From assembly GCA_944324795.1 (NCBI GenBank), contig CALUXR010000004.1, positions 1 through 64,000 of the forward strand: 64,000 bases of DNA, written 5' to 3'. Shown here piece after piece: positions 1,417-9,087 of the stretch. Position 1 is the stretch's first letter; every line of letters starts with the position of its first letter. The DNA comes from an uncultured Acholeplasmatales bacterium. Its GTDB lineage: Bacteria > Bacillota_I > Bacilli_A > Acholeplasmatales > Anaeroplasmataceae. A program made the translations under genes and the position numbers. The notes beneath the pieces were generated by a model, which was not told where the DNA came from, did no database searches, and worked only from the letters and a program-made list of their open reading frames with translations.

Positions 1417-3492
1417 TTATGGGATTTGCCATTCAGCATGGTTTGTTTTTGCTATTTTAAGTGTCCAATCTTTTAGTTCCTCACCGTAGCAATAATCAAT
1501 TAGGAATTCATAAAATTGATATTGAAGCGAGTTTGACCCTTTCAAGTTGAATCCTGCACTTTCTAAAAGCTTATAAGATACTAATGGATGTAGTTCAAAT
1601 GCAGCACACAAAGCAACACATTCTCTTAGTGATGGCTTAACTTCATCATCTAAGAACTTACTTATTTTATGATTATCTATATAGCTCCTTTTGTACACTG
1701 AATAGGGTGTATTGAATCCCGAATCATCCATTAGCACTCTAAGATTAAATCCAAAAGTTCCATTCAATTGAGATTGTAAATTAAGAGCATCATCCAAATC
1801 TTCTACGATTCTATCAATGTCAGCATCTTGAGCTCTTAAATATATTCTTTGATTATGTTCATCTGAAATCTTGATATTTTTTGTTTTATTCTTCTTTCTA
1901 GTTTCGCAGTTATCACAAAACGGAAAAGGCAAATTGTCACTTGAATTATCATCGCTATTGTCAAAAGCGAGACAACATTCATCCATGTGATTAACCGCGT
2001 ATAAAGTTAAATGTCTTTTATTGCCTTCAGCCTCAACATACTTTTTATCATTAATTACAAATACATCATCGACGAATAAAATATGATGATTATCTAAGCT
2101 TTCCTTTAACTTTTTGTTGTTTATGGTAGAGAAAAAGGAATTATAAATACCACCTTCAAATGTCTGCTCGCCCTCTTTAATTTTAACAATGCTATCAGCG
2201 TATGCGTTGTCCTTTTCTTCTTTAATTCTAGTTCTTTGAATTTCTTCAATATCTTTGATTAAGGTGTCGATATCTTCTTTATGATTTGATTTATTCCATG
2301 TATTTATTACATACTTCAGATCGATAAGAAAAGCATGAATAATTTCGTATTCTTGTTGGCCTTTTCTATAATTAGCTTTGGAATAACCTATATATTCAAG
2401 GATATTATTTAATTTTAATTTGTTATTGTTTTTATTGTATGGCAAAACGAACGCGTTCCTTACGCCTTTAATTTCATCGCTTAATTTATTTTGCTTAATA
2501 TAGTCACCATACGTGATTTGCTTTTGAATAGAGGTTGTTTCAGGCAAATGACGCTTATCGGCAGTAAAGCCATATCTGTAATATTTAGCGTCTAAAACAT
2601 ACGCTATGTTATTGTGGACGAGCACAGTATCAGGACGTAAGTCGCTACTTTTAAATGATTCATAATTATTTGTTTTTAAATACCAATCTGCACTTGGATT
2701 AAAATTAGTCGCATCCCTATTGCCAAAAATAGAGTTGATCATTCTTTCAAAGACATATTCGTACGAATCAACGCCATAAACCAATTCATCAGCATTTTGG
2801 TCGTCACTAAGACCCTCAACAATTGTGAGCATGTGTGTTAATCGCCTTTTTTTAATATCATCAAAAGTCTTATCCAACTCACGCTTTAACGTATCTACAT
2901 AAAGATTTCTTAGGCCTTCGTTTATAGGAATTATTCTAATAAAGGAGGTGTTATTGATTCTAAAAAGCCAACCCAGAATATCTAGGCTCTTCTTTACACA
3001 ATATTTATGAATTTCGACTAAGATATTGTCCAATTCATTTTTTACTTCAACAACAAGGTCACTATAAATCACGTTACCTTTCGAGATTATTGGCTGTCCA
3101 TTAAGAGTTCTTTTCCAATCTACTCTTCCCCTTTGGTTTTTCTTTAGTATCTTTTCCCTGTTGATATAAAAACCATTTTTCAAATAATCTTGAATAATCC
3201 ATAGAAAAGATAATATCGGCAAGGCTTTATTCTTAGAAAAGCTTGATTCAATTTTCACATTTGCATTTGAATGAGTCTTAGCAATAGAGATGGTGTTTAA
3301 AATTGCAAGAATATCTTTCCTAGCGTTTTCTAAAGATGAATTATCAAAGTCAAATGTTTCTGGATAATAGAAGTCTATCCTATTATTCCTCATTTTGAGA
3401 CCAATAAAAGAATCATCAATTTTATTGGTGACTGTATGATAATAAATGGTTATTTCATCTTTTCTACTTGTTGAGTTTGCTCTTGACCCCAT
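1417..3492 (-). CDS. LlaJI/McrC-type restriction nuclease with long C-terminal extension
   Basis: About 691 residues from the ATG at 3492, preceded by GAGGT; a GTG at 3513 would add seven residues. The first ~430 residues resemble the nuclease partner of McrB-like GTPases (McrC / LlaJI R2 group). They carry a PD-(D/E)XK core: LRPDTVLV, then YVLDAKYYRYG, then a Gln in TSIQKQITYGDY, roughly residues 285-330. After a linker and a CDNCETRKK motif, the last ~110 residues (from TFGFNLRVLMDDSGF to the end) look like the helical XRE-like tail found on macro-domain and other conflict-associated proteins (YKRSYIDNHKISKFL, then KPSLRECVALCAAFELH, then LLESAGF). It overlaps the GTPase gene by 29 nt, so the two are coupled. 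Likely role: the cleavage subunit acting on foreign or modified DNA. Confidence 0.75.
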   Translation of the reverse strand: MGSRANSTSRKDEITIYYHTVTNKIDDSFIGLKMRNNRIDFYYPETFDFDNSSLENARKDILAILNTISIAKTHSNANVKIESSFSKNKALPILSFLWIIQDYLKNGFYINREKILKKNQRGRVDWKRTLNGQPIISKGNVIYSDLVVEVKNELDNILVEIHKYCVKKSLDILGWLFRINNTSFIRIIPINEGLRNLYVDTLKRELDKTFDDIKKRRLTHMLTIVEGLSDDQNADELVYGVDSYEYVFERMINSIFGNRDATNFNPSADWYLKTNNYESFKSSDLRPDTVLVHNNIAYVLDAKYYRYGFTADKRHLPETTSIQKQITYGDYIKQNKLSDEIKGVRNAFVLPYNKNNNKLKLNNILEYIGYSKANYRKGQQEYEIIHAFLIDLKYVINTWNKSNHKEDIDTLIKDIEEIQRTRIKEEKDNAYADSIVKIKEGEQTFEGGIYNSFFSTINNKKLKESLDNHHILFVDDVFVINDKKYVEAEGNKRHLTLYAVNHMDECCLAFDNSDDNSSDNLPFPFCDNCETRKKNKTKNIKISDEHNQRIYLRAQDADIDRIVEDLDDALNLQSQLNGTFGFNLRVLMDDSGFNTPYSVYKRSYIDNHKISKFLDDEVKPSLRECVALCAAFELHPLVSYKLLESAGFNLKGSNSLQYQFYEFLIDYCYGEELKDWTLKIAKTNHAEWQIP

Positions 3493-5290
3493 CACTAAAT
3501 ACCTCGGTACCACTCTTCAAATATTCCTCTACGAGTTGGTCTAGTGATTTAATATCTTCTTTAAACCATTTATCTCTTGCAAATTTGGAAACATCGTCCC
3601 ACAAGTATTCAAGAACCTTATAAGCAAATTTTTTAGTATCTTCTTCGCTTGAAAGGCTAGCCTCTTCTTTTCTCATGCCAGTCTTATCAACGAAATATAC
3701 GCCAATCTGCTTATCTTCATTATTTAAATTATCAGTTAGCTCTAGCATATATTCATTGATGGCATTAACCAATTCTTCCCATGTAACATTGAGCGAAATA
3801 AGCGACGGAATATACATCCCTTTAAACTCGTGGTCATCCTTAAATTCATTAATTAATTTCTCGAATTCCCACCTTCTCTTAAAGGCAGTGTCTAAAGTAA
3901 ATACGTTTTGATCTGACGTATTCATCGTTGCATATATAAATAAATTACCTGGAAGCTTAATGTCTTTAAAAAGGAATTGCCCATCAAACTCTTTGTTCAA
4001 ATAATCAATTATGTTGATGTTTGTGATTGGATATTCGCTAATGCCATTTTTTCTATCTAACAATTGGAAAATATCGCCAAAAATACTAGGAGCGCTTCCT
4101 CTATTCAACTCTTCTATTACAAGCGCAACTTTCTCGTTTGGCTTTCTTATTGCTTGTGCTAAAGCTAAAGTAAATGGACCGGGATTAAATTGGTAAGTGA
4201 CCTTATCACCATCAACAATAGGCAATATTTGACCAACAAAATCGGTATTTGTATAGTCTGCAAAGAAAGTTGTTCTTATATAATTTTCTTTAGGATAACC
4301 ATCAAGCAAAACGTGCTCAACATAATATGATTTTCCACATCCCGGAGTTCCGTAAACGATTAAGTTTTTGCCATCTTTTATTGTAGATGAATTCCAATCG
4401 TAAATAACAACATCACTATTGTTTGAATCATCATCTTCTTCTATCTTATTGCCATTTACAATATCACTTATCAATGATTTATAACTGTTTAACCTAAAAA
4501 TTGACTTTTGCGTTTTTGCACTGTTTCTATAGTCTTCTGGTAAGTCTTTATAAGGTATATCTTTTATCCACTCAACTTTTCTATTGTTTACATAATCGTT
4601 GTCTTGATCCACCGGATTAGATATGAATTCATAGTTGCCTATAATTCTTCCGATATGAGCAATGTTTCTATCAAAATATACAATATAGTCACCAATTTTA
4701 ATTTCATTCTTAAACATCCATATTTGAGAAACATTTTGACCTAAAGCATATTTATTGATATCTGGATATAGACTCAAATAATGGTTTCTCAAATCGTTTT
4801 TAGTTTCGATATTTGTTAAATCACCCAGCACCTTCCAACCGATACATACATGAGGATTTTCTTTATGCAAAGCCGAATTTTTAAGAGTTATATGAATGCC
4901 ATATACGTTAAAATCTTCATCGGTTTGATTATCAACATTCATTAGAATATGCCTTTCGCCTTCAGAAAATAGCGACAGCATTTGCTTTCCCATTTCGGAA
5001 TTATTTTTAATTATTTGAAGGATATAGTTTCCTTTCCCCTTCCAAATTGTAATTAAGTCATCTATTCCCATGCCACCTTCAGCACTTATGATTTGCTTGA
5101 TGTCTCCTCCAAGTCTAGCATCGGTTGCATATAAGACAGTAACTTTACCTTTTTGCTTCGAAGTCGCTCCCACGAAATCTAAGGCAGTAGCATTTTCCAC
5201 ATTATCAAAAAAATTCTTTGCTACATCTGATAGAATACTAATTTGTTTGTTTATGCATTGATAATCAACTTTCCTAATATAAACTTTCAT
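3464..5290 (-). CDS. McrB-type AAA+ GTPase with EVE-like domain
   Basis: 608 residues. The N-terminal ~300 residues form the recognition part. They include an EVE/PUA-like segment around residues 190-245 (GDYIVYF, HIGRIIGNYEF, KVEWI), a fold known to bind modified bases. The C-terminal half is an AAA+ domain of the McrB class: Walker A GTPGCGKS, Walker B LVIEELNRG, and the McrB signature MNTSDQNVFTLDTAFKRRWEF. It starts 3 nt after the small methyltransferase-like gene with an AAGGAG site. Known family role: a GTP-driven translocase that recruits a McrC/LlaJI-type nuclease, here encoded downstream with overlap. Whether it targets methylated DNA (type IV) or an unmodified site protected by the linked methyltransferases (LlaJI-type) cannot be told from sequence. 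Confidence 0.85.
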   Translation of the reverse strand: MKVYIRKVDYQCINKQISILSDVAKNFFDNVENATALDFVGATSKQKGKVTVLYATDARLGGDIKQIISAEGGMGIDDLITIWKGKGNYILQIIKNNSEMGKQMLSLFSEGERHILMNVDNQTDEDFNVYGIHITLKNSALHKENPHVCIGWKVLGDLTNIETKNDLRNHYLSLYPDINKYALGQNVSQIWMFKNEIKIGDYIVYFDRNIAHIGRIIGNYEFISNPVDQDNDYVNNRKVEWIKDIPYKDLPEDYRNSAKTQKSIFRLNSYKSLISDIVNGNKIEEDDDSNNSDVVIYDWNSSTIKDGKNLIVYGTPGCGKSYYVEHVLLDGYPKENYIRTTFFADYTNTDFVGQILPIVDGDKVTYQFNPGPFTLALAQAIRKPNEKVALVIEELNRGSAPSIFGDIFQLLDRKNGISEYPITNINIIDYLNKEFDGQFLFKDIKLPGNLFIYATMNTSDQNVFTLDTAFKRRWEFEKLINEFKDDHEFKGMYIPSLISLNVTWEELVNAINEYMLELTDNLNNEDKQIGVYFVDKTGMRKEEASLSSEEDTKKFAYKVLEYLWDDVSKFARDKWFKEDIKSLDQLVEEYLKSGTEVFSDGVKSKLNK

Positions 5291-5293
5291 AAA

Positions 5294-6034
5294 CTACTTC
5301 TCCTTTTTTTCAGTTTTTAACAAATATGCTCCCCATTGCTCTGCAATAGCTTTTGCAAATCCTGGGAACGTTTTACTTCGCCATATTCTTCTTTCCTCAG
5401 GCGTCTTTGTTTTCGTTAAACCATCAGAATACCATTTCGCTAATCTTCTACCACTACCAAATTCTATATATTCCCCGGGATCTACAATATCCGTAGGGAC
5501 TAACAAAGGTAAATTTTTTAACCATAAACATGTTTTTTTAGAGGCGGAATCGCCAAACTGCCATGGTTGCACGATTTGATTTGGTTTTCTAAACCTAGTG
5601 TTCATAATACCAACAGGATTTTCTATAGCTATATGTTTAATATTTGCTTTTGCCAATTTCAGAAAAAACTTTGCAGCCTCTTCTCTTTCCTTTGCTCTAT
5701 TCGGAAAATTTGGATGAGGTCTCCTTTGATCTATTGGCAAATCCTTATCATCGGGATGATAAAACCATTTAGCTCCACTTACAGCCAAAAATGTGCAAGG
5801 TGGATGAGCAACCATTAAATCCCATTCTCCTTCAATAAAATATTCTTTTCCGGTTTCTAAAATTCCGCCTTTATTTTTAATTACTTGGAGTACATCTTGC
5901 TTAAAATGCCATTCTGGATGCCCTCCACTGCATGGCAAAATATCGCAACTATATGCATTAAATCCTAGCTTTCTAAATTCTGTGCATACGCGTTGGCTTT
6001 CTTCACAAGCAATCAATATATTAAATTTTTTCAT
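5294..6034 (-). CDS. small PPC-motif DNA cytosine methyltransferase-like protein
   Basis: 246 residues, ATG at 6034 after GGAGGGG. It opens with a Rossmann start (NILIACEESQRVCTEF), has a catalytic-loop-like AHPPCTFLAVSG near residue 80 and an ENPVG motif near 145, matching motifs I, IV and VI of C5 cytosine methyltransferases. It lacks the usual motif VIII-X region and any sizeable target recognition domain. Relatives are common in phages, usually annotated as DNA cytosine methyltransferase. Here it sits inside a restriction operon, overlapping the full methyltransferase by 14 nt. It could be a second modification subunit, as LlaJI has two, or make a different base modification. Confidence 0.7.
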   Translation of the reverse strand: MKKFNILIACEESQRVCTEFRKLGFNAYSCDILPCSGGHPEWHFKQDVLQVIKNKGGILETGKEYFIEGEWDLMVAHPPCTFLAVSGAKWFYHPDDKDLPIDQRRPHPNFPNRAKEREEAAKFFLKLAKANIKHIAIENPVGIMNTRFRKPNQIVQPWQFGDSASKKTCLWLKNLPLLVPTDIVDPGEYIEFGSGRRLAKWYSDGLTKTKTPEERRIWRSKTFPGFAKAIAEQWGAYLLKTEKKEK

Positions 6035-7280
6035 TTCTTTTCCCCTCCATTACGTTATACACAGCAAGACCTATTTTTTTGGCAAACAAAACCGGAACTG
6101 CATTTCCGATCATCTTAAAGCAATACGCCGTTGATCCCAAAAATTCGAAATCAATTGGGAAGGACTGCAATAAAGCAGCTTCTCTAACAGTGATGGTTCT
6201 AGCTTGATTTATATCTGGATGAATGAACATAAAACCATCTTTATATAAATGCGAAACAATCGTTGGGGAAGGCTTGTCCCACTCCAAGCTTCTATATTTA
6301 TTATGGTTCGTTTTATGTCCTGTTTTTTCAAAGTAAAAATCTAGTTTCTCTTGATTTGGAATGTCGTTCATATCATTTTTCAGCCATTCCTTAATTATTG
6401 AAATATCTCTAGGGTTATTGTATCGAGCATCATGAAGCGGAATAATCACATCCCCAACTAGCGCATGAGAAACATTCTTTCTCCCTTCCTTATAGGGCTT
6501 ATCTAACACTCTAAATTTTGGGAGGTTTCCTATTGCATCTCGCACAGTTTTTTTGGTTTTGTTTGATTTTAAATTTGATAGTTCCTTATACAAACTTTCA
6601 ACTTCTAAACCGCTCTCTTTAGATACTCCAAAAATAATAACTCTTTTTCTTTCTTGTGGAACATCAAAATCCGAAGCGGAATAGATCGACTTATTCATTA
6701 AATTTGGTGTTCTAATTTCGTAGCCTATCTCTTCAAATGCCTTGTAGATTCTTTTGATGACAAATTCACCACCTGGCTTTGCACTTAAAATACCGGGCAC
6801 ATTCTCAAAAACAATAATTTTAGGCCTATAGTTGTCTACTATTTTTACAAAACTTTCAAATAAATAATTACGATAATCATCGCGCATGGAATTTGGATCC
6901 TGCGCTCTGCCAGCTAGTGAATAAGCTTGACAAGGAGGCCCGCCTATAATCACATCGACTTTATTGTTTCCTATTAATGCATCTAAACCGCCAGTAACAA
7001 ATACTTCGTCATTCGCTTGCCTATACAGTTTCAATGTTTCCTGTTCCCAATTGCCGTGCATTAATTCGCTTGTTTTCTGAACATCAAAAAGAACCACACG
7101 CTTTCTAGCTTCAGAAATCTTATAGTTCCATCTTTTTATTAAATTATTACGAAGCGTTTCAACCATGGGTTTTTCCCATTCAACATGTGCCAAAAAGTGA
7201 TATTTTTTTGTTTCTAAAAAACCCTCAGACAACCCACCGGCCCCTGCAAACAGATCAATAACATTTATTTTTTTATTCAT
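6021..7280 (-). CDS. C5 cytosine DNA methyltransferase of the restriction operon
   Basis: 419 residues with all main Dcm-family motifs: I DLFAGAGGLSEGF, IV GGPPCQAYSLAG (catalytic Cys), VI FENVPGIL, VIII QERKRVIIFG, IX RTITVREAALLQSFP, X KMIGNAVPVLFAKKIG. The variable region between VIII and IX (about residues 225-340) is the target recognition domain. The ATG at 7280 follows AAGGTG, which overlaps the stop of the HTH gene. Expected role: methylating cytosine in the host's own sites so that the downstream McrB/LlaJI-like pair spares them. Motif strength makes the family certain; the target sequence is unknown. Confidence 0.93.
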   Translation of the reverse strand: MNKKINVIDLFAGAGGLSEGFLETKKYHFLAHVEWEKPMVETLRNNLIKRWNYKISEARKRVVLFDVQKTSELMHGNWEQETLKLYRQANDEVFVTGGLDALIGNNKVDVIIGGPPCQAYSLAGRAQDPNSMRDDYRNYLFESFVKIVDNYRPKIIVFENVPGILSAKPGGEFVIKRIYKAFEEIGYEIRTPNLMNKSIYSASDFDVPQERKRVIIFGVSKESGLEVESLYKELSNLKSNKTKKTVRDAIGNLPKFRVLDKPYKEGRKNVSHALVGDVIIPLHDARYNNPRDISIIKEWLKNDMNDIPNQEKLDFYFEKTGHKTNHNKYRSLEWDKPSPTIVSHLYKDGFMFIHPDINQARTITVREAALLQSFPIDFEFLGSTAYCFKMIGNAVPVLFAKKIGLAVYNVMEGKRNEKI

Positions 7281-7286
7281 GTTTCA

Positions 7287-7481
7287 TCACCTTAACGCAC
7301 TCTTTCCACTATTAATCCAAGAATCCAATTCATCTTTTTTAAATTTCCATTGTTTTCCAACTTTATGAGCAGGGATTCCGTTATTTTTCCTTATCCAATC
7401 ACGGATTGTTACAGTCTTTACTCCTAAATAATCAGCCGCTTCTTCAATATTTATCCATTTATCGTTATTTACAGCGTTCAT
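7287..7481 (-). CDS. excisionase/MerR-like HTH DNA-binding protein
   Basis: 64 residues from the ATG at 7481 (GAGGTG five bases upstream); a GTG at 7487 would add two residues. The whole protein is one winged HTH_17-type domain: NIEEAADYLGVKTVTIRDWIRK, then HKVGKQWKFKKDELDSWI. Such domains occur as excisionases (Xis) and as small controllers of restriction operons. As first gene of the restriction operon it may control its timing; as a protein of an element next to a tRNA site it may also act in excision. The sequence does not decide between the two. Confidence 0.75.
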   Translation of the reverse strand: MNAVNNDKWINIEEAADYLGVKTVTIRDWIRKNNGIPAHKVGKQWKFKKDELDSWINSGKSALR

Positions 7482-7516
7482 TTTCACACCTCAAAAATTA
7501 AAAAATCACATAGAAG

Positions 7517-7623: not shown

Positions 7624-8712
7624 CTAAAATTCAAATAGGCAGGTCAACAATTCCACTACTATTCCATTCCCCGCCATTTTATAAAGTTGAGTGTTGCTGA
7701 ATTCATTGATTACCTTATCTATCTCTTCATCACACCACCCCATAAGTCGCCAACATTCTCTAGGAGTTAGTCTTCTAATGGATATAAGTTCATCCTTATC
7801 ATCTACGACTACTCCTATATCAGTTACCGATGTTTTGATAGTTGGAATCATCGATTTTTGAACCACTCCCCTTTTTGATGGACATCTATTTGTATAGACT
7901 CCATCACCTACTTCAGCTAATGCATAGCCTTCCTTGGTTGCTTGTGGAACAATAATGTAATTATCTGTTGGCCTGTAGCCGGCGTGGGTCGTTATGGCAA
8001 AAGCATAGTCGGTTTCATTCATATATTTTGGTCTAAATCTCAATCCACGAATGAGCCCGTGCCTATCTTTCATATCAGTAAAGCAAGTGATGAGTTTCTT
8101 GCTTAGAAAATATTTCTCATCTACATCATTTTCTAATAGTTCTGCAAGCTTTTTTGTTAAAGGAGTAGGTTTAGGGAATTCGTAGTGTGCATCCTTATCT
8201 CTAATAGAAATCATGAAACATCGCTCTCGATTTTGAGGAATGCCATAGTCTTTAGCGTTAAGAATCTTGTAGAAATTTTTATAGCCTAACGAATCTAGAT
8301 AGTCTAACCAAACTTGAAATAATGGCATGAATTTCTTCGATACTATGTTTTTCACGTTTTCCATCAATAAATATTTAGGAAGTTCATCATTTTTCTTTGC
8401 TACTTCAAGCAGTCTTTGAACTTCCCATAAAAGCGATGAATGTGTACCACTTCCTTTGTCAAATCCTTTCCTTTTCCCTGCTAAACTAATATCAGTGCAA
8501 GGAAATGAATAAGTCCATAAATCAGCTTTAGGTAATCTTTCTATTTCTCTTATATCACCTAAATTATTGGTTGAACCATGAAGTAACTCATAAGCTCTAC
8601 TTGCATATTTATCATTCTCACTTATTGCTACTGCTTCATGTTCTATATTTGCTCTTTTTAATGCTTCTCTTTGGCATCCAACACCAGCAAATAGCTCTAT
8701 AACTTTAATCAT
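7624..8712 (-). CDS. second C5 cytosine DNA methyltransferase (phage/orphan type)
   Basis: 362 residues from the ATG at 8712 with GAGAGGTG upstream (a GTG at 8724 also exists). Motifs: I VIELFAGVGCQREAL, IV SFPCTDISLAGKRKGF, VI LLMENVKNI, VIII QNRERCFMI, IX RRLTPRECWRLMG, X QLYKMAGNGIVVEL. The long segment between VIII and IX (residues ~185-320) is the recognition domain. It looks more like phage orphan methyltransferases than the operon enzyme. It is separated from the HTH gene by 137 nt and a promoter, with no clear terminator between. It may supply the second methylation needed for an asymmetric site, or protect the element from host nucleases. Confidence 0.92.
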   Translation of the reverse strand: MIKVIELFAGVGCQREALKRANIEHEAVAISENDKYASRAYELLHGSTNNLGDIREIERLPKADLWTYSFPCTDISLAGKRKGFDKGSGTHSSLLWEVQRLLEVAKKNDELPKYLLMENVKNIVSKKFMPLFQVWLDYLDSLGYKNFYKILNAKDYGIPQNRERCFMISIRDKDAHYEFPKPTPLTKKLAELLENDVDEKYFLSKKLITCFTDMKDRHGLIRGLRFRPKYMNETDYAFAITTHAGYRPTDNYIIVPQATKEGYALAEVGDGVYTNRCPSKRGVVQKSMIPTIKTSVTDIGVVVDDKDELISIRRLTPRECWRLMGWCDEEIDKVINEFSNTQLYKMAGNGIVVELLTCLFEF

Positions 8713-8791
8713 TTTAATAAACACCTCTCAAAGTCTTTAGAACTTCAAAAGGCATTTATTTCGGTTAAATTAACAATTTAAAAAGGGGTGT

Positions 8792-8918
8792 CATTTTTCT
8801 AGTAGGGTTTCGTTTTTCTAGTAGTCTAACGTTTTTCTAGTAGGGGCATCGTTTATCTAGTAGAACTAAAATTAGAAAATCTATAGGTTCGAATCAATTT
8901 ATATCTACTAGCAAAACG
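8792..8918. repeat. five-copy 14-mer array: four direct repeats plus one inverted
   Basis: Copies of CGTTTTTCTAGTAG (one or two mismatches) start at 8792, 8811, 8830 and 8850, that is every 19-20 bp, about two helical turns. A fifth copy in inverted orientation is at 8905-8918 (CTACTAGCAAAACG). No gene covers them. The position beside the 3' end of a tRNA gene at the edge of an acquired island suits arm-type binding sites of a tyrosine integrase. The integrase itself is not in this window. Confidence 0.75.
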
Positions 8919-9003: not shown

Positions 9004-9087
9004 TGGTGCGGGTAACAGGACTCGAACCTGCACGCCGGGGGCACTAGGTTCTAAGCCTAGCGCGTCTACCAATTTCGCCATACCCGC
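9004..9087 (-). tRNA. tRNA-Leu (anticodon UAG)
   Basis: An 84-nt class II tRNA including an encoded CCA. The acceptor stem GCGGGTA pairs with TACCCGC; the anticodon stem CTAGG/CCTAG encloses a loop CTTAGAA with anticodon TAG; a long variable arm and a GGTTCGAGTCC T-arm follow. It reads CTA and other CTN leucine codons. The 3' end faces the accessory island, so it is the likely attachment site of the element to its left. It starts 17 nt after the dnaE stop codon. Confidence 0.97.

What the first reader, a model, noticed from the sequence alone, without database searches (positions are those of the whole stretch)
1417..7481. Hybrid restriction operon: HTH, C5 methyltransferase, PPC-motif protein, McrB-EVE GTPase, LlaJI/McrC-type nuclease
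Five overlapping or nearly abutting genes combine features of LlaJI-type restriction-modification (methyltransferases plus McrB-like GTPase and nuclease) with an EVE-like modified-base reader typical of type IV systems. Carrying both a protective methyltransferase and a modified-base reader is contradictory unless the system reads a different modification or uses a hemimethylated or unmodified asymmetric site. It is the best candidate in the window for an undescribed defence system.
Basis: partly seen in the sequence, partly recalled or inferred. Interest (0 to 1): 0.76.

Follow-up and report, generated by a model that had tools for sequence, protein, structure and literature searches.

The report
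Prophage LlaJI-type restriction cassette, unusual methyltransferase pair
A prophage carries a restriction-modification system of the known LlaJI kind (an McrBC-like motor and nuclease that should cut unmethylated DNA), but in an undescribed sub-form with an unusual small second methyltransferase, a two-part DNA-reading subunit and a nuclease fused to an extra regulator-like domain.

Summary
The five genes are really there, intact, same strand, overlapping or nearly abutting. R2 is a LlaJI endonuclease (Pfam E 2.6e-33, PD...DAK motif). R1 is an McrB-like GTPase whose N-terminus is not only EVE-like: residues 1-119 are a B3 sequence-specific DNA-binding domain (model vs H. pylori LlaJI.R1, 6c5d: TM 0.84, 1.7 A). 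A divergent EVE-like domain follows, then the GTPase.

New here: (1) the 419-aa C5 methyltransferase, a 246-aa 'PPC' protein and a B3 domain form a conserved triad in window, Clostridia, Alphaproteobacteria, Bacteroides and phage loci. Its methyltransferase clade (100/99) is sister to the second methyltransferase of tandem two-methyltransferase LlaJI systems, so PPC appears to replace the first. (2) B3 is a swappable module, standalone in Bacteroides. (3) R2 carries a ~250-aa C-terminal extension, homologous to an ImmA/IrrE-like protein that sits right after R2 in some other phages. (4) The cassette is prophage cargo, shared at ~97% identity by three Bacilli families.

Verdict: a new variant of a known kind. 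Function untested. The EVE role is unresolved.

The parts
7287..7487 (-). HTH_17 / excisionase-type DNA-binding protein, 64-66 aa (ATG at 7481); likely cassette regulator
   Evidence: Pfam HTH_17 2.1e-16; close relatives precede LlaJI-like cassettes in L024 (67% id), L040 (60%), L119 (55%)
6021..7280 (-). M.C5: 5-methylcytosine DNA methyltransferase, 419 aa
   Evidence: Pfam DNA_methylase 3.3e-58; motifs I, IV, VI, VIII, X intact; PPC-associated clade 100/99 in the tree
5294..6034 (-). PPC protein, 246 aa: small C5-methyltransferase-like protein of phage family phrog_757; proposed second-strand methyltransferase
   Evidence: phrog_757 5.3e-65; hhalign aligns its HPPC and IENPVG to motifs IV and VI of M.C5, pairwise E 1.5e-4 but probability only 52%; next to this M.C5 clade in every locus seen
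3464..5290 (-). R1: McrB-like GTPase specificity/motor subunit, 608 aa, B3 - EVE-like - AAA+
   Evidence: PADLOC REase_II 1.1e-75; McrB 6hz4 and LlaJI.R1 6c5d by sequence and fold
4934..5290 (-). R1 residues 1-119: B3 sequence-specific DNA-binding domain
   Evidence: phmmer 9.9e-14 to 6c5d; AlphaFold2 + Foldseek TM_t 0.84, rmsd 1.7 A
4436..4909 (-). R1 residues 128-285: divergent EVE-like domain
   Evidence: profile hits McrB proteins L135 (8e-22) and L138 (7.6e-17; annotated mcrC next to it); Pfam EVE only 0.035 in one of 7 members; PADLOC PDC-S02 9.8e-28
3491..4393 (-). R1 residues ~300-600: McrB-type AAA+ GTPase domain
   Evidence: AAA_5 2.1e-8; best fold match 9a5m YdjA-YdiS (the BsuMI system, from memory) 3.9e-20, then McrB 6hz4
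1417..3513 (-). R2: LlaJI-type McrC-like endonuclease, up to 698 aa (likely start ATG 3492)
   Evidence: Pfam RE_LlaJI 2.6e-33, 116 bits vs cut-off 23.6
2584..2634 (-). R2 catalytic motif PD...DAK (residues 294-310)
1471..2169 (-). R2 C-terminal extension (residues 449-681), homologous to the C-terminal part of ImmA/IrrE-like phrog_4031 proteins
   Evidence: phrog_4031 8.6e-27, profile 381-612 of 626; alignment; dN/dS about 0.02 vs G548
7624..8724 (-). further C5 methyltransferase, 366 aa; probably a phage gene flanking the cassette, not its core
   Evidence: 73% identical to the upstream gene of phage contig L036, separate clade; not next to the triad in L033-L035
491..1105 (-). phage gene of unknown function downstream of the cassette
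   Evidence: phrog_13787 2e-14; in L021 the same region continues into phage DUF2800 exonuclease, Enc34-type ssDNA-binding protein and DNA polymerase
9004..9087 (-). tRNA-Leu at the end of the element (attachment-site side)
   Evidence: ARAGORN; in G548 the homologous element end abuts a tRNA-Trp instead

Best explanation
A prophage-borne LlaJI-type restriction-modification system. M.C5 and the PPC protein methylate cytosines of one (probably asymmetric) target site, one enzyme per strand, replacing the usual M1/M2 pair (inferred). R1 binds the unmethylated site through its B3 domain, assembles into an McrB-like ring and uses GTP to translocate; R2, the PD-(D/E)xK subunit, joins the ring and cuts (inferred from McrBC and LlaJI). 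The EVE-like domain between reader and motor is an accessory nucleic-acid-contacting module shared with EVE-McrB proteins. The HTH protein regulates the operon, and the C-terminal extension of R2 is a regulatory or interaction module related to an ImmA/IrrE-type phage protein. Biological role: the lysogen is protected against other phages. Shown: gene content, domains, homology, conservation, prophage context. Inferred: every activity.
For: RE_LlaJI 2.6e-33. B3 match to 6c5d by sequence and fold. AAA+ closest to 9a5m YdjA-YdiS and to McrB. M.C5-PPC-B3 triad conserved in L033, L034, L035 and L036, with M.C5 60-69% and PPC 60-80% identical to the window's. B3 is a separate gene next to an unrelated McrB/DUF2357-McrC pair in L035. 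M.C5 clade 100/99, sister (99/97) to the M2 enzymes of tandem M1+M2 systems. None of the viral loci with M.C5 at 43-47% identity that matched other cassette probes had PPC or B3, and they carried a second C5 gene or gene fragment. vsr next to the triad in L033 and L035 fits 5mC. Genes intact, and M.C5, PPC and R2 with dN<<dS, in G157 and G548. Prophage context. R1.LlaJI shown to be the specificity subunit (PMC1459862).
Against: PPC activity is unproven: no Pfam match, poor structure model (pLDDT 48.8), only motif-level similarity to C5 methyltransferases. Many phage PPC homologues have no C5 partner nearby, so it may do something else. No methylome or restriction data. EVE assignment is weak by Pfam and hhalign and no EVE structure is among the top 50 fold matches. 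Whether the 7624-8724 methyltransferase is the real second enzyme is not excluded.
Confidence: 0.72

Rival explanations
1. Dual-specificity restriction: R1 uses B3 to find unmethylated self-type sites and the EVE-like domain to find foreign modified bases, so one motor-nuclease acts as both a Type II and a Type IV enzyme and catches phages that modify their DNA to escape B3.
For: B3 and EVE-like domains sit in one polypeptide and both persist in L034. The EVE-like domain also occurs in McrB proteins without a methyltransferase in the stretch seen: L022/G021, which has the LlaJI-type R2 next to it and no C5 hit, and L138 next to an annotated mcrC.
Confidence: 0.2
2. The 7624-8724 C5 methyltransferase is the true partner of M.C5 (a LlaJI-like pair split by the HTH gene) and the PPC protein is an accessory or orphan phage gene.
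For: It lies directly upstream and is kept in the phage relatives L036 and G548; it has intact C5 motifs.
Against: Separate clade shared only with the L036 flanking gene; no such gene next to the triad in L033 or L035, and a different one downstream in L034; PPC and not this gene is fixed between M.C5 and B3 in every locus.
Confidence: 0.13
3. A Type IV (McrBC-like) system reading modified DNA through EVE, with the methyltransferases present only by chance.
For: EVE-McrB plus LlaJI-type R2 with no methyltransferase found nearby exists in a family relative (L022/G021).
Against: B3 specificity domain present; M.C5 and PPC overlap or abut R1 in one operon and co-occur with B3 across phyla.
Confidence: 0.05
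4. An undescribed defence system of a categorically new kind.
For: No paper found in the searched library describes this operon.
Against: R1, R2, M.C5 and HTH all fall in LlaJI-type or common families.
Confidence: 0.02

Closest known systems
LlaJI of Lactococcus plasmid pNP40 (Type II with McrBC-like R1/R2; PMC1459862)
   Same: Same R1 (McrB-like GTPase) + R2 (RE_LlaJI, PD-D/ExK) arrangement, methyltransferase genes upstream, one orientation
   Different: LlaJI has two canonical C5 enzymes and a different R1 N-terminus; here one C5 enzyme plus PPC, B3+EVE-like R1, R2 with C-terminal extension
[quoted passage not shown] cited in PMC7680126)
   Same: B3 domain, 51-53% identity over residues 1-72 in the alignments, TM 0.84
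   Different: Rest of the H. pylori operon could not be examined here
BsuMI (YdiO/P/R/S-YdjA) of Bacillus subtilis
   Same: AAA+ domain best fold match 9a5m, YDJA-YDIS
   Different: From memory BsuMI has separate small subunits and two canonical C5 enzymes; no B3 or PPC known to me
SpyI on conjugative prophage phi1207.3 (PMC4260502)
   Same: LlaJI-type R1/R2 carried by a phage near DNA polymerase and DUF2815 genes
   Different: One divergent C5 methyltransferase, R1 shows no B3 match
PcaI (Dcm-like methyltransferase + McrBC-like PcaIAB; PMC8989522)
   Same: Mobile McrBC-like endonuclease with a 5mC methyltransferase, restricts unmethylated DNA, McrC-like subunit has extra terminal extensions
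   Different: One Dcm homologue, no PPC reported; relation of its extensions to the R2 C-terminus untested
EVE-McrB Type IV systems (PMC7641849)
   Same: EVE-like domain fused to an McrB GTPase
   Different: Here with a B3 domain and cognate methyltransferases

Membership tests
LlaJI-type (McrBC-like Type II) R-M | R2 homologue with PD-(D/E)xK motif | tested here: met
   RE_LlaJI 116 bits vs 23.6 cut-off; PD...DAK at 294-310
LlaJI-type (McrBC-like Type II) R-M | R1 McrB-like GTPase with a site-specific N-terminal domain | tested here: met
   AAA+ to McrB; B3 to 6c5d
LlaJI-type (McrBC-like Type II) R-M | two 5mC methyltransferases in the operon | tested here: inconclusive
   M.C5 canonical; the PPC protein is C5-like by motifs only; 7624-8724 is probably not a cassette gene
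LlaJI-type (McrBC-like Type II) R-M | restriction of unmethylated DNA at a specific site | not testable with these tools
   needs an experiment
McrBC-like Type IV restriction | no cognate methyltransferase | tested here: not met
   M.C5 and PPC in the operon, conserved across phyla
EVE domain (PF01878) | match above the Pfam cut-off | tested here: not met
   no match in the window protein; best 0.035 in one of 7 members
EVE domain (PF01878) | EVE fold and modified-base pocket | tested here: inconclusive
   model strand/helix order compatible; no EVE among the top 50 fold matches
MADS | MAD1 HTH above NCBIfam cut-off | tested here: not met
   63.9 bits vs 80
DISARM | drmMII with the other drm genes | tested here: not met
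   M.C5 resembles DrmMII (3.3e-89) but no other Drm model is among the listed matches of the cassette genes

The most novel reading that the evidence does not exclude
R1 is a two-reader enzyme: B3 recognises the unmethylated self-site and the EVE-like domain recognises foreign modified bases, so a single McrBC-type machine restricts both unmodified and modified phage DNA, with a very small C5-like methyltransferase (PPC) protecting the second strand and an ImmA-related domain on the nuclease sensing the state of the prophage or the cell.
Probability: 0.14. Interest if true: 0.8.

Novelty: new variant of a known kind. Interest (0 to 1): 0.46.

Why it matters
It shows that LlaJI-type systems are modular: a methyltransferase pair plus a B3 reader travels as a unit between different McrBC motors, and one methyltransferase can apparently be replaced by a very small phage-type C5-like protein. 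That makes three questions testable: what PPC-family (phrog_757) proteins in many phages do, whether a site-specific and a modified-base reader can work in one enzyme, and what ImmA/IrrE-associated domains do beside restriction nucleases.

Tried and rejected
Structure prediction of the PPC protein gave pLDDT 48.8 and no fold match below 1e-3; not used. A scan of IMG/VR with the single R1 sequence found nothing. PDB sequence search with the EVE-like profile and with the PPC profile found nothing usable. hhalign of the EVE-like profile to one bona fide EVE protein: probability 6.8 only. MADS and DISARM considered and rejected. The idea that phrog_4031 proteins are a standard LlaJI component was weakened: only 8 of 65 phage loci with enough upstream sequence have a LlaJI-type R2 directly upstream. 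The H. pylori LlaJI paper (PMC6066307) is not held, so its operon could not be compared. The B3 domain was not found on any plasmid.
Full report
OBSERVATION. Five complete ORFs lie on the minus strand at the stated place: HTH 7287-7487 (ATG at 7481), C5 methyltransferase 6021-7280, PPC protein 5294-6034, McrB-like R1 3464-5290, R2 1417-3513. They overlap or abut, with plausible ribosome-binding sites in front of R1 and PPC and intact catalytic motifs.

WHAT THE PARTS ARE. R2 is a LlaJI endonuclease (PF09563, 116 bits vs 23.6) with PD...DAK. R1 has three parts. Residues 1-72 match the H. [quoted passage not shown] Residues ~300-600 are an McrB AAA+ domain, best fold match 9a5m (YDJA-YDIS, which I know from memory as BsuMI), then McrB. 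Pfam does not call it in the window protein and hhalign against one true EVE protein is weak. But a profile of the region finds McrB proteins that were not in the profile: L138, beside an annotated mcrC, at 7.6e-17, and L135 at 8e-22, the latter followed by an unannotated gene. Divergent EVE domains fused to McrB are common (PMC7641849). I treat it as a probable, unproven EVE-like domain.

METHYLTRANSFERASES. M.C5 is canonical (PF00145 3.3e-58). The 246-aa PPC protein belongs to phage family phrog_757 'DNA methyltransferase' (5.3e-65); its HPPC and IENPVG align to motifs IV and VI of M.C5 (hhalign pairwise E 1.5e-4, probability 52%), but it is small and has no Pfam match. A scan with the B3 domain brought in L031/L032 (near copies of the window cassette) and three distant loci; all three distant loci have the order M.C5 - PPC - B3: L034 Clostridia (M.C5, PPC, B3-EVE-AAA R1, R2), L033 Alphaproteobacteria (vsr, M.C5, PPC, B3-..., contig end), L035 Bacteroides (M.C5, PPC, a standalone 127-aa B3 protein, an unrelated AAA protein, a DUF2357/PDDEXK McrC, vsr). 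A scan with M.C5 added phage contig L036 (M.C5, PPC, B3-R1, R2). M.C5 is 60-69% and PPC 60-80% identical to the window's in these loci. Of the other phage loci, those with M.C5 at 43-47% identity that matched further cassette probes had no PPC or B3, and most carry a canonical second C5 gene in tandem. In the tree the five PPC-associated enzymes form one clade (100/99), sister (99/97) to the M2 enzymes of those tandem systems. The simplest reading is that PPC replaced the M1 enzyme, and that M.C5+PPC+B3 is a transferable specificity module. A vsr gene beside two of the loci fits 5mC production. The 7624-8724 methyltransferase groups only with the gene flanking the cassette in L036 and looks like a phage gene outside the cassette.

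THE SUPPOSED CONTRADICTION. A protective methyltransferase with an McrB-type motor is the LlaJI design, described in 2006 as combining Type II and Type IV features, with R1 as the specificity subunit (PMC1459862). With a B3 reader in R1 no modified-base reader is required to explain the methyltransferases. EVE-like R1 proteins with methyltransferase genes beside them also occur in phage loci L118-L121 with other N-terminal domains, so the EVE-like domain is a recurrent middle module. Conversely, G021/L022, a family relative, has an EVE-McrB (56% identical from residue 126; no B3) plus LlaJI-type R2 and no C5 methyltransferase found within the 9.4 kb read, which looks like a Type IV derivative. 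Whether EVE reads a modification in the window system is open.

R2 EXTENSION. Window R2 is 698 aa; the closest relatives here (L022, L034, L036, L024, LlaJI) are about 413-440 aa. Its C-terminal part matches the C-terminal part of phrog_4031 (8.6e-27), whose full-length members are ImmA/IrrE-like (Peptidase_M78 plus HTH; phrog_4031 2.9e-236). Such a gene begins within 30 nt after R2 in L041, L042, L048 and L118. The family is widespread in phages and only 8 of 65 informative loci have a LlaJI-type R2 directly upstream, so the link is real but not exclusive. Between window and G548 the extension shows dN 0.003 and dS 0.17, so it is under purifying selection and not debris. I found this fusion only in the window lineage.

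CONTEXT. The same cassette is ~96.5-98% identical in two MAGs of other families of the class (G157, G548; titled 'uncultured Bacilli bacterium'). In G157 the flank continues into phage DUF2800 exonuclease, Enc34-type ssDNA-binding protein and DNA polymerase genes. The element ends at a tRNA-Leu in the window and at a tRNA-Trp in G548. LlaJI-type cassettes occupy the same neighbourhood in L024, L036, L048, L121 and in phi1207.3. In sampled genomes of the phylum, PPC was found only in these three (3 of 392).

MECHANISM AND VERDICT. Best reading: a phage-carried LlaJI-type Type II system, M.C5+PPC protecting two strands, B3 finding unmethylated sites, GTP-driven R1 ring delivering R2. Shown: domains, conservation, co-occurrence, context. 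Inferred: all activities, PPC as methyltransferase, the EVE role and the R2 extension role. New variant of a known kind. No paper in the searched library describes it, but most subscription papers and REBASE were not searchable.

Noticed in passing
window 8784-8863: Four direct repeats (19-20 nt spacing, core TTTTTCTAGTAG) plus an inverted copy beside the tRNA-Leu; related stretches occur at five other places in the same genome, one beside a tRNA-Ser. Possibly an attachment or regulatory region of a family of elements.
   Followed up: partly
L022 (G021) 4127-7084: EVE-McrB and LlaJI-type R2 without B3 and without a C5 methyltransferase found nearby, N-terminus an HTH_73 domain: a possible LlaJI-to-Type-IV switch within the same bacterial family.
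   Followed up: partly
L035 10001-15097: Bacteroides sp. An322: standalone B3 protein next to M.C5, PPC, an unrelated AAA protein, DUF2357-PDDEXK McrC and vsr; B3 as a separate specificity subunit.
   Followed up: partly
L041 12647-14536, L048 12512-14398, L118 12007-13917: phrog_4031 ImmA/IrrE-like proteins directly after LlaJI-type R2; the family is common in phages and what it usually sits beside was not worked out.
   Followed up: partly
L220-L257: PPC-family proteins (42-67% identical) in many phages, most with no C5 methyltransferase matching the probes nearby: an uncharacterised small C5-like family acting alone.
   Followed up: partly
L024 4149-10896: Related cassette in a phage-like setting with the same HTH, an N6-type methyltransferase-like gene plus a C5 enzyme, R1 and R2: the methyltransferase part is exchangeable.
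   Followed up: no
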